From positions 1 through 30,874 of the IMG/VR virus record IMGVR_UViG_3300023242_000538: a stretch of 30,874 bases of DNA, one strand, 5' to 3'. Positions 1 to 25,013 of this stretch are shown piece by piece (the first letter of the stretch is position 1; each line of letters begins with the position of its first letter). Below the pieces are notes generated by a model that saw only the letters and a list, made by a program, of their open reading frames with translations, did not search any database and had not been told where the DNA came from. Position numbers and translations under genes: made by a program. This DNA comes from a virus.

Positions 1-51
1 GAATTTGTACATTACGATATTCGTGGAACAAAAGCAAGGTGGACGAAATGA
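1..51 (+). CDS. C-terminal end of an endolysin-like peptidase (partial)
   Basis: The frame is open from the window edge and encodes 16 residues (EFVHYDIRGTKARWTK) before TGA at 49-51. The VHYDIRG-KARW ending resembles the C-terminus of M15-type D-Ala-D-Ala carboxypeptidase/endolysin proteins of Bacteroidota phages, where the His of the 'VH' is a metal ligand; this is recognition from memory. The stop overlaps the ATG of the next gene (ATGA), so the two are translationally coupled, and a lysis role fits the spanin-like neighbour. With so few residues the family assignment is tentative, but that a real gene ends here is likely. Confidence 0.5.
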   Translation, partial: EFVHYDIRGTKARWTK

Positions 52-563
52 AAAATATACTAATAATTACACTATCACTTTTGCTGTTTAGTTGTGGTGC
101 CAGAAAGTCTAGCAAGTCTAAAATTGAGACGGTCAAACAGTCAGAAGCTGCAATCTCATCAGTTTTAAAAGTAGAAACGGTAAAAGATGTTAATACGGTA
201 AAACAAGCCCTTACAGAGGTTAATTTTAGCAATGAAAAGTTAGAACCTATTGACGTTTTAAAGCCTATAATTAAGACCCAAAACACAAAGGACGGGACAA
301 CTATTACAACTTGGCAAAACGCAAAAGTTGAACGCTCAAGCACTTTAAAAAAAGAGGTAGTAAAAGAAATTAAGAGAGATAAAAGTAAAATATTGCAGCA
401 TTCCAAAAGTAAGGCCTTGTTAAAAAGCAAAGAAAATAACGAAAATATTAAAAGAGATACCAAACGGGAAAGCTATTCGCCTTGGTGGCTTTTACCTTTA
501 ATTATTCCAATTTCTTGGATTTATATTAAATTTCGCGAAAAAAAGCAACAAAGGCAACAATAA
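48..563 (+). CDS. Candidate unimolecular spanin (lipoprotein with C-terminal TM)
   Basis: The product has 171 residues. It starts with a lipoprotein signal: MKN, a hydrophobic core, then LLFSC with Cys16 as the lipidated residue. A long, Lys/Glu-rich, mostly polar middle follows, and a C-terminal membrane segment (WWLLPLIIPISWIYIKF, about residues 144-161) ends in a basic tail. An N-terminal outer-membrane lipid anchor plus a C-terminal inner-membrane helix is the topology of u-spanins such as phage T1 gp11, which fuse the two membranes after endolysin action. The ATG at 48 overlaps the upstream endolysin-like stop and places the signal peptide at the very N-terminus; a GTG at 39 would only add three residues. 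A terminator follows 22 nt downstream. No sequence homology to known spanins can be claimed; the call rests on topology and context. Confidence 0.6.
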   Translation: MKNILIITLSLLLFSCGARKSSKSKIETVKQSEAAISSVLKVETVKDVNTVKQALTEVNFSNEKLEPIDVLKPIIKTQNTKDGTTITTWQNAKVERSSTLKKEVVKEIKRDKSKILQHSKSKALLKSKENNENIKRDTKRESYSPWWLLPLIIPISWIYIKFREKKQQRQQ

Positions 564-584
564 CATACACTTATTAGATACGCT

Positions 585-612
585 AAAGCCCCAATGATAT
601 GGGGCTTTTTCT
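585..612 (+). terminator. Rho-independent terminator after the lysis genes
   Basis: AAAGCCCC (585-592) pairs with GGGGCTTT (601-608) around an 8-nt loop and is followed by a T run. It lies 22 nt after the spanin stop and separates the lysis/late unit from control region 1. Confidence 0.85.
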
Positions 613-690
613 ATGAAGTAAACAATATAAACAATAAATATTAAAATAATATATAATTAATAATATAGTACTATATAAGGCTATATGGGC

Positions 691-722
691 TTATAGGCTT
701 ATAGGCTTATAGGCTTATAGGC
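691..722. repeat. Four tandem copies of TTATAGGC
   Basis: The 8-bp unit TTATAGGC occurs four times head to tail (691, 699, 707, 715), preceded by a related CTATATGGGC and followed by CTATAG. It lies in the AT-rich middle of control region 1. The period (8 bp) is too short for CRISPR, and no spacers exist. Confidence 0.9.
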
Positions 723-854
723 CTATAGTATATTACGCTATATAAAGAGTTTGCCATTGTTTACGCGTTTATTGTTTACTTCGGCTTGTAAGTCCCGTAA
801 ACAGTAGTAAAAACCGTAAACAATAAATAAATTTTAAAACTTTATTAGAATTTA

Positions 855-887
855 TTTGCTTTTTAGTTTTTAAAGGTTTTATCTTTG
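855..887 (+). promoter_or_regulatory. Bacteroidota-type promoter for the early region
   Basis: TTTG at 855-858 and TATCTTTG at 880-887 are separated by 21 bp, matching the Bacteroidota -33/-7 consensus. The ATG of the HTH-like gene is at 904, so the untranslated leader would be about 10 nt. The block AATTTATTTG at the -33 position is also found in the late promoter at 15147. Confidence 0.8.
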
Positions 888-903
888 TAAAAAATATTTA
901 CGA

Positions 904-6447: not shown

Positions 6448-6538
6448 AAAGTTAAATTATTGTTAACATAGTAAAAGTGTAATACACTTTAGGTGTATAT
6501 TTGTACCAGCAATAAAGCTAAAGCAAATTACAGGAATT
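6446..6538 (+). promoter_or_regulatory. Promoter/operator/leader module, copy 1
   Basis: The module contains three parts. First, a conserved block at 6446-6466 centred on GTTAAATTATTGTTAA. Second, a perfect odd-centred inverted repeat AAAGTGTA-A-TACACTTT (6474-6490). Third, a -7 box TATATTTG (6496-6503) followed by a 35-nt leader up to the ATG at 6539. No TTTG sits at the normal -33 spacing; the inverted repeat occupies that place, so it is a plausible operator or activator site. The same elements recur at 12609-12700, with a 43-nt box-plus-leader differing at only two positions. Confidence 0.75.
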
Positions 6539-6796
6539 ATGGAAAATAGTAGTAATATTTTAATCCAACTTGGCGGAATTGCCTATGATGCAACGCAATT
6601 AAAAGAAAAATTAAACGCATTAATTGAAACGCCCAAAAACCGCCAGCAAGTTTTAGACGGAGGGCATAAAGACGATTATAAAAAATGGTACAATACCGCA
6701 TCTAATGACATGCAAAACAAAACAAATGAGCAGTTTTTACTTGCTAAAAAAGACTTTATTGCTAACATTAAAGAAATTTTATTAATCCTTGAATAA
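6539..6796 (+). CDS. Small helical protein, unknown
   Basis: The product has 85 residues, largely helical and polar, with a hydrophobic C-terminal end (IKEILLILE). It is the first gene behind promoter/leader module 1 and starts a block of five small genes before the primase-helicase. Not recognised; a host-takeover or replication accessory role is possible only by position. Confidence 0.65.
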   Translation: MENSSNILIQLGGIAYDATQLKEKLNALIETPKNRQQVLDGGHKDDYKKWYNTASNDMQNKTNEQFLLAKKDFIANIKEILLILE

Positions 6797-12618: not shown

Positions 12619-12700
12619 ATAATTGTTAAAGCGTATTACACTTTTAAGGCGCGGGCTTATATTTGTACCAGCAATAACGCTAAAGCAAATTACAGGAACT
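12609..12700 (+). promoter_or_regulatory. Promoter/operator/leader module, copy 2
   Basis: The module has the same parts as at 6446-6538: the block with GTTAAATAATTGTTAA (12609-12629), an inverted repeat AAAGCGTA-T-TACACTTT (12628-12644, one mismatch), a -7 box TATATTTG (12658-12665) and a leader to the ATG at 12701. Box-plus-leader is 43 nt in both copies with two differences. The inverted repeat is 13 nt from the -7 box here against 5 nt in copy 1, so repression or activation strength may differ. Confidence 0.75.
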
Positions 12701-12910
12701 ATGAAGGTATTTAAAATAACGACAGTAAATTTATCTCTCGATAATAGCGAAGTATTAATTTACGGAAAAGCTCCTTTTGTTGTAGTGTATAAAAAGTATA
12801 ATCAAATTTTAAAATACTTAACGCACGAAGACGTCCAGTTTTTGCTGAAAACAAAGAAAGCTATCAAAAAGGCCAGTCAAAAAAACATTTTGAAAATACT
12901 TAACCCTTAG
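12701..12910 (+). CDS. Small basic protein, unknown
   Basis: The product has 69 residues from the ATG at 12701. A longer frame begins with TTG at 12623, but the promoter and the leader shared with copy 1 place the true start at 12701. The N-terminal half is beta-like (MKVFKITTVNLSLDNSEVLI), and the C-terminal half is a lysine-rich helix (KTKKAIKKASQKNILKI). It could bind nucleic acid; no family recognised. It ends in TAG. Confidence 0.7.
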   Translation: MKVFKITTVNLSLDNSEVLIYGKAPFVVVYKKYNQILKYLTHEDVQFLLKTKKAIKKASQKNILKILNP

Positions 12911-14376: not shown

Positions 14377-14622
14377 ACAGAAAATAAGTATTACTATGCA
14401 AGGGAGGCCTCGGCAGCTAGTTCAAACGAGGACTTTCTGGAGGTAGGGAGGGAGTATTTCTTGGACGAATACAAAGATGAAACGGGCTTTTTTGTGGCAG
14501 CGGACAGCTAGGCTATTCTCTTTAAACGTGGCAAGGGAAGCTTTTATGAACTCGACTTGCAGGGCTTTATTAGCTTTTATAGGGGTAAAATAAGATACGT
14601 AAGCGTAAACAATAAAAAATAG
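14374..14622 (+). pseudogene. Small gene interrupted by an in-frame TAG
   Basis: From the ATG at 14374 the frame gives 45 residues (MTENKYYYAREASAASSNED... ETGFFVAADS), then TAG at 14509-14511. The same frame continues with 36 protein-like residues (AILFKRGKGSFYELDLQGFI... VSVNNKK) to TAG at 14620-14622. The second part has no ATG of its own and looks coding (alternating hydrophobic residues, acidic/basic balance). The simplest reading is one ~82-residue protein with a recent nonsense mutation or programmed/suppressed readthrough. TAG is an ordinary stop elsewhere here (for example 4152-4154 and 7267-7269). The 45-residue product alone may be functional. Confidence 0.6.
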
Positions 14623-14679
14623 CATTGTTTACAAAAGCAACAATAAGCAACAACACATTACTTTATTGTTTACGCTTAC
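14599..14679. repeat. Perfect 18-bp inverted repeat with GTAAACAAT cores
   Basis: GTAAGCGTAAACAATAAA (14599-14616) is the exact reverse complement of 14662-14679, with 45 nt between the arms. Each arm contains a GTAAACAAT box, and another box (reverse, 14624-14632) lies between them. The left arm overlaps the last codons of the interrupted gene. Confidence 0.9.
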
Positions 14680-14763
14680 CAAGTCAATAGCGGCGGCGGT
14701 TCGCAGGATTGTAAACAATGTAAACAATGATTTAGTTAAAACATTCAAGAAGGTAAAAACTAG

Positions 14764-14800
14764 AAAACGGCACTTTTTAATAAGTAGCCGTTTTTATTTT
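14764..14800. terminator. Probable bidirectional terminator
   Basis: AAAACGGC (14764-14771) pairs with GCCGTTTT (14787-14794), and the ACT/AGT next to it may extend the stem with a bulge. It is followed by T-rich sequence on the plus strand and preceded by A-rich sequence, so it could end the early transcripts. Confidence 0.65.
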
Positions 14801-14954
14801 GCGAAAAAATGAAAGTTTTTAGTTTTTTCTTAAATACTGTTAAAAACTGTTAAAATAAGCAACTAAGGCAACAATAAGCAACAATCATTGTTTACGCATC
14901 AAGCCCAACAACGGCGGGGGCTAACTTACTAAGTAAACAATATAAACAATAATA

Positions 14955-14978
14955 ATTAATATTAATATTAATATTAAT
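14955..14978. repeat. Four tandem ATTAAT units in AT-rich DNA
   Basis: ATTAAT occurs four times in tandem (14955, 14961, 14967, 14973), directly after a GTAAACAAT/TATAAACAAT pair. The following ~40 bases are almost pure AT (TATAGCTATATAGG and similar). It could serve as a DNA-unwinding element if this is an origin. Confidence 0.85.
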
Positions 14979-15146
14979 AATATAGTATTATATAGCTATA
15001 TAGGATTATAGTATATTATAGAAATATTGAATAATACACTATAGCCCTGTAGAGTTCATTGTTTCTTTGTTTACATTGTTGCTTTGAGACTTAAAACCAA
15101 CAACGGCGCGGGTTAACAGCGTAAACAATAACTTTTTTGCAATTTA

Positions 15147-24773: not shown

Positions 24774-25013
24774 CTAAAGCAGTGCTGTAATTAAGTAATA
24801 CCCCGTAACCGCCCCTAAGCCCGCGCCTAACGCGTAGATTAGTTTGTCCTTGAACTCCGACAGAGCGACTTTTGAGACGTTATAGCTCCAGAGTAGGCTA
24901 ATTGTAAAACTCGCTAAAAAAATACCTAGAACGAAACCTTTAGCAATTAAAACGGTGTTAACCGCGACTAGTCCAATTTGCACGTATGCAGTTATAAAAA
25001 TTTTGTATTTCAT
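24774..25013 (-). CDS. Small multi-span membrane protein
   Basis: The product has 79 residues with two or three membrane helices (about 5-24, 26-44, 58-79) and a short polar loop (NVSKVALSEFKDK). A similar NV-x-K-V-A ... D+LIYA-G-A-x-G pattern occurs in small unknown membrane proteins of other phages. It is convergent with the tape measure gene, with 1 bp between stops. Its start is preceded by an A-rich leader similar to that of the other minus-strand gene. Holin or superinfection-exclusion roles are possible but unproven. Confidence 0.75.
   Translation of the reverse strand: MKYKIFITAYVQIGLVAVNTVLIAKGFVLGIFLASFTISLLWSYNVSKVALSEFKDKLIYALGAGLGAVTGYYLITALL

What the first reader, a model, noticed from the sequence alone, without database searches (positions are those of the whole stretch)
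48..563. Candidate unimolecular spanin in a Bacteroidota phage
The protein has a lipobox Cys near the N-terminus and one C-terminal membrane helix, with a long polar middle, directly after an endolysin-like gene. This is the u-spanin topology. Spanins of Bacteroidota phages are poorly described, and the sequence does not resemble the T1 type.
Basis: partly seen in the sequence, partly recalled or inferred. Interest (0 to 1): 0.5.

Follow-up and report, generated by a model that had tools for sequence, protein, structure and literature searches.

The report
Phage membrane-fusion lysis protein (u-spanin)
The gene most likely encodes a one-piece spanin, a protein tied to both bacterial membranes that helps a virus of Flavobacterium-like bacteria burst its host; it is a good new example of a kind that is already known.

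Summary
Window 48-563 (+) encodes 171 aa: lipobox (LFS-C16), a polar middle of about 127 residues without cysteine, one C-terminal membrane segment, a basic tail. Its ATG overlaps the stop of a gene of which 16 codons lie in the window; in 5 of 5 relatives that gene is an M15 endolysin and this lipoprotein follows it. That is the T1 layout (holin, endolysin, u-spanin), without sequence likeness to T1 gp11. The protein is distantly related to lipoproteins of Flavobacterium phage FCL-2 (best supported), the hemulen group and, less surely, 11b and Cellulophaga phi12:1; a 2018 survey lists FCL-2, 11b and phi12:1 among phages with u-spanins. So: a new member of a known kind; function untested, and the membrane segment is weak on one hydropathy scale. 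Two by-products: 43 of 43 candidates (mostly presumed Bacteroidota phages) carry a basic residue within five positions after the lipid cysteine, opposite to the acidic signal that sends Bacteroidota lipoproteins to the surface; and some other candidates have a periplasmic cysteine, which the survey found in none of its 58 u-spanins.

The parts
1..51 (+). Last 16 codons and stop of the upstream M15-family endolysin gene (most of it lies outside the window)
   Evidence: Reading frame; 15 of 16 residues end the 126-aa M15 protein of L003, L005, L006, L007. For the L004 copy: Peptidase_M15_3 E 1.5e-18, phrog_894 endolysin E 7.5e-33
48..563 (+). u-spanin candidate gene, 171 aa; ATG overlaps the endolysin stop (ATGA)
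48..95 (+). Lipoprotein signal peptide and Cys16 (lipobox LFSC)
   Evidence: sequence; C16 and G17 invariant in 6 of 6 and 8 of 8 aligned proteins; pN/pS 0.12 for residues 1-20
96..107 (+). Residues 17-20, G-A-R-K: basic box directly behind the lipid Cys, no acidic residue
228..335 (+). Most conserved periplasmic stretch, residues 61-96 (LEPIDVLKPI...TTWQNAKV), predicted beta hairpin at 74-91
   Evidence: pN/pS 0.13; AlphaFold2 strands 74-81 and 84-91 (low confidence); extended motif in 14 of 45 lipobox+TM proteins outside the clade and 0 of 2240 other ORFs (pattern drawn up after seeing the sequences)
339..470 (+). Predicted long charged helix, residues 98-141
   Evidence: AlphaFold2 model, ten-residue block means 57-72 pLDDT for 101-140
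477..533 (+). C-terminal membrane segment, residues 144-162 (SPWWLLPLIIPISWIYIKF)
534..560 (+). Basic C-terminal tail REKKQQRQQ, expected in the cytoplasm (positive-inside rule, recalled)
   Evidence: sequence; 5 K/R and 1 D/E after residue 160
585..608 (+). Hairpin followed by T residues just past the gene, likely transcription terminator
   Evidence: fold of 560-620: -18.3 kcal/mol, z -4.3, 0 of 200 shuffles as good; the consensus scanner did not list it

Best explanation
The gene encodes a unimolecular spanin. [quoted passage not shown] One chain thus spans the periplasm through the peptidoglycan mesh. When a holin has let the M15 endolysin out and the wall is cut, the tethers are freed to cluster and fold back, bringing the two membranes together so that they fuse and the outer membrane opens. 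Shown here: gene, topology signals, place in the cassette (from relatives), conservation, distant kinship with lipoproteins of phages listed as carrying u-spanins. Inferred: lipidation, membrane locations, identity of the holin, fusion.
For: Lipobox + polar middle + C-terminal segment. Order tail fibre, small protein(s), one-TM protein, M15 endolysin, this gene in 5 of 5 relatives L003-L007; T1 has holin, endolysin, gp11 with overlapping gene ends. Survey with an M15-endolysin profile: of 79 loci (window clade, phage records, L017/L018 and loci with under 700 nt downstream left out) 21 have a lipobox + single C-terminal TM ORF directly after the endolysin and 35 have one within 5 kb; among 649 other genes of 70-300 aa 15 pass, 14 of them such a candidate further downstream, 1 an antisense ORF (loci are not independent). 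Kinship: hhalign of the clade (6 rows) with 11b, FCL-2, hemulen and L017 proteins: probability 97.3, E 2.3e-11 over residues 1-97, signal peptide included; periplasmic part alone against FCL-2: 0 of 1000 shuffles as good. Putative members lie after M15_3 (window clade), M15_4 (L034), Amidase_3 (phi12:1) and GH19 (11b) endolysins. No periplasmic Cys, as in all 58 u-spanins of PMC6139136. No same-strand lipobox ORF of 20 aa or more in another frame of 1-900.
Against: No experiment. The window's own membrane segment is weak on the Kyte-Doolittle scale and TM/tail evolves fast (pN/pS 0.92). Part of the kinship signal is the signal peptide: with the periplasmic part only, the first-round hit to FCL-2 has E 0.007, close to an ORF of L125 with no lipobox at 0.013, and L102/L107 drop out of the list; shuffles as good as real are 46 of 1000 for phi12:1, 41 for 11b, 11 for hemulen and 797 for RAP44. 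44 of 79 loci had no candidate by the detector; L102 and L107 among them are missed members, others have different neighbours. In hemulen-type contigs the candidate lies 0.9-1.5 kb past the endolysin, and in L017/L018 on the other strand. No Pfam family at E 10. The AlphaFold2 model is poor (pLDDT 62, pTM 0.20).
Confidence: 0.87

Rival explanations
1. It is the outer-membrane half (o-spanin-like) of a two-component pair whose inner-membrane partner is the 89-aa one-TM coiled-coil-like protein encoded just before the endolysin in relatives.
For: The 89-aa protein has one N-terminal hydrophobic stretch and a charged rest; its weak PHROG matches include holin (0.067) and Rz-like spanin (0.1); PMC6139136 lists Bacteroides phage B40-8 as two-component.
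Against: The lipoprotein has its own C-terminal membrane segment in 9 of 9 clade members, which an o-spanin does not need; charges after the TM of the 89-aa protein (GGKKMR) suggest a cytoplasmic C-terminus (inference); its gene stands before the endolysin like a holin gene.
Confidence: 0.05
2. A lipoprotein with another job late in infection, for example blocking superinfection at the envelope.
For: Phage lipoproteins with such roles exist (recalled, no call); in hemulen-type phages the gene is 0.9-1.5 kb from the endolysin, beside other genes.
Against: Such lipoproteins are not known to need a C-terminal TM (recalled); position behind different endolysins in several phages; 21 of 79 versus 15 of 649 in the survey.
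Confidence: 0.05
3. Both ends sit in the inner membrane (lipid end not moved to the outer membrane), so the protein is a membrane-bound helper of holin or endolysin rather than a tether.
For: Nothing here shows where the lipid end goes; the basic box is unusual for host lipoproteins (5 of 26 host lipobox ORFs have more basic than acidic residues at +2 to +6).
Against: The topology is that of T1 gp11, which complements Rz/Rz1 (PMC6139136, passages and section 13); a protein with a TM would not need lipidation for inner-membrane anchoring.
Confidence: 0.03

Closest known systems
Lipoprotein of Flavobacterium phage FCL-2 (AIX11874; the phage is in the u-spanin Table 5 of PMC6139136, the gene is my reading)
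   Same: Lipobox, CGSRK, LEPVD..KPI...YNTKV motif, C-terminal TM, no periplasmic Cys; blastp E 2e-7 for the pair; periplasmic part 0 of 1000 shuffles as good
   Different: 127 aa, shorter; 28% identity over 123 columns, below the 40% family rule of that paper; the 80-aa gene before it has no Pfam match at E 0.1, so a place beside an endolysin was not shown here
gp64 of Cellulophaga phage phi12:1 and PHG11b_49 of Flavobacterium phage 11b
   Same: Directly behind the endolysin gene; CGTRK / CGSRK, EAVDSSKPI..YENAKV / EPIDNKSEF..YKNVHI; blastp E 4e-4 and 1e-3 with the window protein
   Different: Other endolysin families (Amidase_3, GH19); kinship of the periplasmic parts only suggestive by shuffles; listed as separate families in the survey
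T1 gp11, the prototype u-spanin
   Same: Gene order, overlap with the endolysin gene, lipobox, C-terminal TM with basic tail
   Different: No sequence likeness beyond the TM; no basic box after Cys (CSTASA); gp11 is described as mostly beta strands (PMC6139136), here a small predicted hairpin between predicted helices
hemulen9-1 gp003 of the Flavobacterium phages hemulen, lillamy, tooticki and others
   Same: Lipobox, CGSVKK, LEPVN..KPI...YNTRV, C-terminal TM; M15 endolysin of hemulen 64% identical to that of L004
   Different: Not adjacent to the endolysin: in similar contigs 0.9-1.5 kb apart, in hemulen9-1 across the ends of the record; annotated hypothetical

Membership tests
u-spanin (definition of PMC6139136) | N-terminal outer-membrane lipoprotein signal | tested here: met
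   LFSC lipobox by rule and eye; F at -2 lies outside the consensus [LVI][ASTVI][GAS]C quoted in that paper, and other candidates deviate too. No SignalP run, no biochemistry.
u-spanin (definition of PMC6139136) | Single C-terminal transmembrane domain | tested here: met
   Octanol sum -15.2 and AlphaFold2 helix 145-170; Kyte-Doolittle fails a 1.6 cut-off; 9 of 9 clade members have the segment by the octanol scale
u-spanin (definition of PMC6139136) | Gene in a lysis cassette beside the endolysin | tested here: met
   5 of 5 relatives; in the window only 16 codons of the endolysin are present
u-spanin (definition of PMC6139136) | No periplasmic cysteine (observed in all 58 of that survey) | tested here: met
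u-spanin (definition of PMC6139136) | Complements loss of Rz/Rz1, disrupts the outer membrane | not testable with these tools
   needs an experiment
T1 gp11 family | At least 40% identity over 40% of the length (family rule of PMC6139136) | tested here: not met
   27% over 41 columns, TM region; hhalign probability 10%
T1 gp11 family | Periplasmic domain of a short helix and four or more beta strands | tested here: inconclusive
   Model has two strands and long helices, but pLDDT 62
FCL-2 / hemulen / 11b / phi12:1 group of Flavobacteriia-phage lipoproteins (a grouping made here) | CGxxK box, [EA][PV]xD..KP-like motif and [WY]xNxxV in the periplasmic part | tested here: met
   supported for FCL-2 and hemulen, suggestive for 11b and phi12:1; the 40%/40% rule of the survey was not met with FCL-2 (28%)
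two-component spanin (Rz/Rz1 type) | Embedded, overlapping or separate o-spanin gene paired with an N-terminal-TM i-spanin | tested here: not met
   No same-strand lipobox ORF in other frames of 1-900; no second sense lipobox ORF of 60-300 aa in the window; the upstream part of the cassette lies outside the window

The most novel reading that the evidence does not exclude
Bacteroidota-phage u-spanins carry their own sorting code: a basic box at +2 to +6 behind the lipid cysteine, the charge opposite of the acidic signal that sends host lipoproteins to the cell surface, which keeps the lipid end on the inner leaflet where a tether must be; and the window protein belongs to a superfamily with a shared hairpin motif that joins several u-spanin families now listed apart. 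For: 43 of 43 distinct candidates have a basic residue there, 40 of 43 more basic than acidic, 0 of 43 two or more acidic (for L017 Cys17 was used in place of the Cys14 picked by the rule). Controls: of 26 lipobox ORFs in 400 kb of a Flavobacterium genome 10 have two or more acidic and 5 more basic than acidic; 20 of 23 distinct hexamers versus 5 of 26, Fisher p 2e-6; of 8 lipobox ORFs without TM in the same loci 3 have two or more acidic and 1 a basic residue. T1 gp11 has no such box. Against: in PMC5080379 the periplasm-facing lipoproteins of C. canimorsus showed no conserved residues, so lack of acidic residues may be enough; the basic residues may serve membrane fusion; hosts of most contigs are presumed (L048 is titled Alphaproteobacteria).
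Probability: 0.3. Interest if true: 0.5.

Novelty: new member of a known kind. Interest (0 to 1): 0.3.

Why it matters
Spanins complete lysis of Gram-negative cells, and how one-piece spanins act has not been worked out (PMC6139136, section 13). This group gives a compact, conserved motif and a range of natural variants, several in phages isolated on Flavobacterium and Cellulophaga, in which the tether model can be tested. The charge pattern behind the lipid cysteine, if it is a sorting code, would tell how Bacteroidota decide which lipoproteins stay inside.

Tried and rejected
Direct tblastn of the window protein against 50,697 phage records: no match at E 1; Pfam: none at E 10; PHROGs: only weak unknown families, best phrog_5885 E 0.0076. 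Profile search of PDB sequences: 7 weak matches, best E 0.02, unconvincing. Foldseek against viral models: none at E 0.001, as expected for a poor model. Profile search of 296 genomes of the phylum of G001: only G001 itself at E 1e-5; 150 genomes of its genus: 23 at E 1e-4, of which 9 (G001, G306, G337, G351, G353, G369, G378, G385, G423; the G337 frame holds a stop) match nearly the whole profile and the rest only its first part; 7 of these 9 genomes gave a locus with the topology besides G001, none came from G337. Iterated HMM over all ORFs drew in at least one doubtful lipoprotein (L050), so I rely on first-round and periplasm-only scores. Cellulophaga phage phi10:1, listed as a u-spanin phage, gave no convincing candidate in the 50.0 of 53.7 kb scanned. 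The consensus terminator scan missed the hairpin behind the gene; the fold supports it. Nonlabens phages P12024S/L have an M15 endolysin followed by a protein with two hydrophobic stretches (by eye), not a lipoprotein.

Rows dropped before counts: the window clade (L054-L058), phage records, L017/L018 and loci with under 700 nt downstream; 98 of 102 loci had an endolysin ORF. In one search candidates under 120 aa (under 150 aa on the minus strand) and near-duplicates were left out, and L034, L102, L107 and the genome loci L132-L170 were not counted. One of the 26 host lipobox ORFs is the prophage-like L136 protein. The extended motif was drawn up after seeing the sequences, and five truncated or lipobox-missed relatives (L034, L092, L094, L102, L107) were put into its positive set by hand. 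Genes were called by a simple greedy rule; hydropathy scales are recalled.

Full report
What is there. Window 48-563 (+) is an open frame of 171 codons. It begins MKNILIITLSLLLFSCGARK, a lipoprotein signal with Cys16, and ends SPWWLLPLIIPISWIYIKF-REKKQQRQQ, a membrane segment with a basic tail. Between lie about 127 polar residues without cysteine. The best C-terminal 19-mer has an octanol sum of -15.2 but a mean Kyte-Doolittle value of only 1.18; with 17-residue windows and a cut-off of 1.6 the window protein and L026 fail while L003-L007, L024 and L030 pass. AlphaFold2 gives its best scores to helix 145-170. Lipidation was judged by rule, not by SignalP.

Surroundings. The window is the whole of a virus record of 30,874 bases that starts inside the preceding gene. 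Its first 51 bases read EFVHYDIRGTKARWTK-stop, with the stop TGA overlapping the ATG of our gene. Five relatives fetched with the protein (71-79% identical) show what is missing: a tail-fibre gene, an 82- or 86-aa gene, in two of five a 95-aa membrane protein, an 89-aa protein with one hydrophobic stretch, a 126-aa M15 protein (for the L004 copy Peptidase_M15_3 E 1.5e-18 and PHROG endolysin E 7.5e-33) and then our gene. Behind the gene in the window lies a stable hairpin with T residues (-18.3 kcal/mol, z -4.3), not listed by the consensus scanner, and then a stretch without a listed gene up to 904. No same-strand lipobox ORF of 20 aa or more lies in another frame of 1-900, and no second sense ORF of 60-300 aa in the window has a lipobox. 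Phage T1 shows holin, endolysin and gp11 in the same order with overlapping gene ends; a terminator is annotated at the end of gp11, on the other strand.

Is the topology meaningful? My detector (lipobox plus a single C-terminal membrane segment), tried on 18.8 of 48.8 kb of T1, found gp11 alone. I took loci found with an M15-endolysin profile in bacterial genomes (16 loci) and viral contigs (the best 80 of 385). Leaving out the window clade, phage records, L017/L018 and loci with under 700 nt behind the endolysin, 79 remain; 21 have such an ORF directly behind the endolysin and 35 have one within 5 kb, against 15 of 649 other genes of 70-300 aa, 14 of which are themselves a candidate further downstream and 1 an antisense ORF. 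The loci are related to one another, so the Fisher value of 6e-13 is only a guide. In 400 kb of a Flavobacterium genome (G001, in which L040, Flavobacterium cerinum, lies) 2 of 377 called genes pass: one of 65 aa, and one that looks like a prophage u-spanin of the L042 type.

Kinship. A profile of nine clade members against 2382 ORFs finds at E below 1e-3, with a best shuffled decoy at 0.48, L034, L102, L107, the L091 group with L092, L017, phage 11b PHG11b_49 (6e-7), L039, FCL-2 (5e-4) and L094; RAP44 follows at 1e-3. Because lipoprotein signals look alike I repeated this without signal peptide and TM: L034 stays at 3e-13, FCL-2 comes next at only 0.007, close to an ORF of L125 with no lipobox at 0.013, and L102/L107 drop out. 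By shuffling each target's own periplasmic part, 0 of 1000 shuffles reach FCL-2, 11 hemulen, 4 L163, 46 phi12:1, 41 11b, 797 RAP44 and 651 T1 gp11. Profile-profile comparison of the clade with 11b, FCL-2, hemulen and L017 gives 97.3% and E 2.3e-11 over residues 1-97, signal peptide included. The shared parts are the box CGxRK and a stretch LEPID..KPI....WQNAKV, which is also where the clade is most constrained (pN/pS 0.12 and 0.13 against 0.44 overall). Both AlphaFold2 models, of the window protein (pLDDT 62) and of a hemulen-type protein (pLDDT 63), put beta strands there; confidence is low. Putative members follow four endolysin families: two M15 peptidases (M15_3; M15_4 in L034), an amidase (phi12:1) and a GH19 enzyme (11b), which argues for a role in lysis that does not depend on the enzyme.

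How it probably works. As a u-spanin: lipid end in the outer membrane, helix in the inner membrane, the chain crossing the wall until the endolysin frees it, then membrane fusion. Topology signals and gene order are shown; lipidation, locations and fusion are inferred from T1 gp11, which complements Rz/Rz1 (passages and section 13 of PMC6139136; that section says there is not yet physiological or biochemical data on how u-spanins function).

What is known. PMC6139136 (2018; passages and sections 8 and 13 seen) found 58 u-spanins in 13 families; its Table 5 includes the Bacteroidota phages phi12:1, phi13:2, phi10:1, FCL-2, 11b and RAP44. It names phages, not genes; that the genes I compare are the ones meant is my inference from topology and, for 11b, phi12:1 and RAP44, from their place beside the endolysin. 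PMC8776804 annotates two more (passages), PMC10136315 and PMC10367356 mention spanins of crAss-like and Porphyromonas phages (passages), and PMC12596118 says Bacteroidetes phages exclusively use the unimolecular type (passage), though the 2018 paper lists Bacteroides phage B40-8 as two-component and B124-14 as spanin-less. So the kind is known and this is a new member with a distant link to listed families.

By-products. First, all 43 distinct candidates have a basic residue at +2 to +6 after the lipid Cys (40 more basic than acidic, none with two or more acidic), while of 26 lipobox ORFs of the host stretch 20 have an acidic residue, 10 two or more, and 5 are more basic than acidic; of 8 other lipobox ORFs in the phage loci 3 have two or more acidic residues and 1 a basic one. 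For L017 I took Cys17, not the Cys14 that the rule picked. Hosts of the contigs are mostly presumed. In Bacteroidota acidic residues there form the surface-export signal, and in the same paper periplasm-facing lipoproteins showed no conserved residues (PMC5080379, passages), so a positive retention code is a guess. A search for papers holding both 'spanin' and 'lipoprotein export signal' found none in the held library. Second, 14 of 49 distinct lipobox+TM ORFs have a periplasmic Cys; two are short reverse-strand ORFs and probably spurious, and in 11 of the other 12 the Cys follows D, E or N, unlike the 58 of the survey.

Noticed in passing
L038, L086, L042, L048, L070, L074, L093, L097, L124, L105, L131 (positions): u-spanin-like lipoproteins of other subgroups carry a periplasmic Cys after D, E or N, mostly near residues 86-99, against the statement that u-spanins have none; they might form disulfide-linked dimers.
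   Followed up: partly
L034:2297-2880: A family member behind an M15_4-type endolysin whose C-terminal membrane part lies in another frame after a run of A; sequencing error, decay or slippage cannot be told apart here.
   Followed up: partly
window 600-900 and 14590-15140: Two AT-rich non-coding stretches share repeated units like GTAAACAATATAAACAATAA, perhaps binding sites for replication or regulation.
   Followed up: no
window 6496-6541 and 12658-12703: Two 46-nt copies, 96% identical, directly before ATG codons, each with TATATTTG and a nearby palindrome-like AAAG(T/C)GTA(A/T)TACACTTT: perhaps a pair of co-regulated promoters.
   Followed up: partly
window 24774-25013 (-): Minus-strand gene of 79 hydrophobic aa directly behind the tape-measure gene of the plus strand; phrog_6764 E 1.5e-16, weak holin match 0.12.
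   Followed up: no
L003-L007, 89-aa gene before the endolysin; similar 107-aa gene in L120, L129 and others: One N-terminal hydrophobic stretch followed by a charged coiled-coil-like part; probable holin or antiholin with no convincing Pfam match.
   Followed up: partly
L136 (Flavobacterium genome G001, contig 12): A 161-aa lipoprotein with C-terminal TM resembles the L042 type, which suggests a prophage lysis gene in the host chromosome.
   Followed up: no
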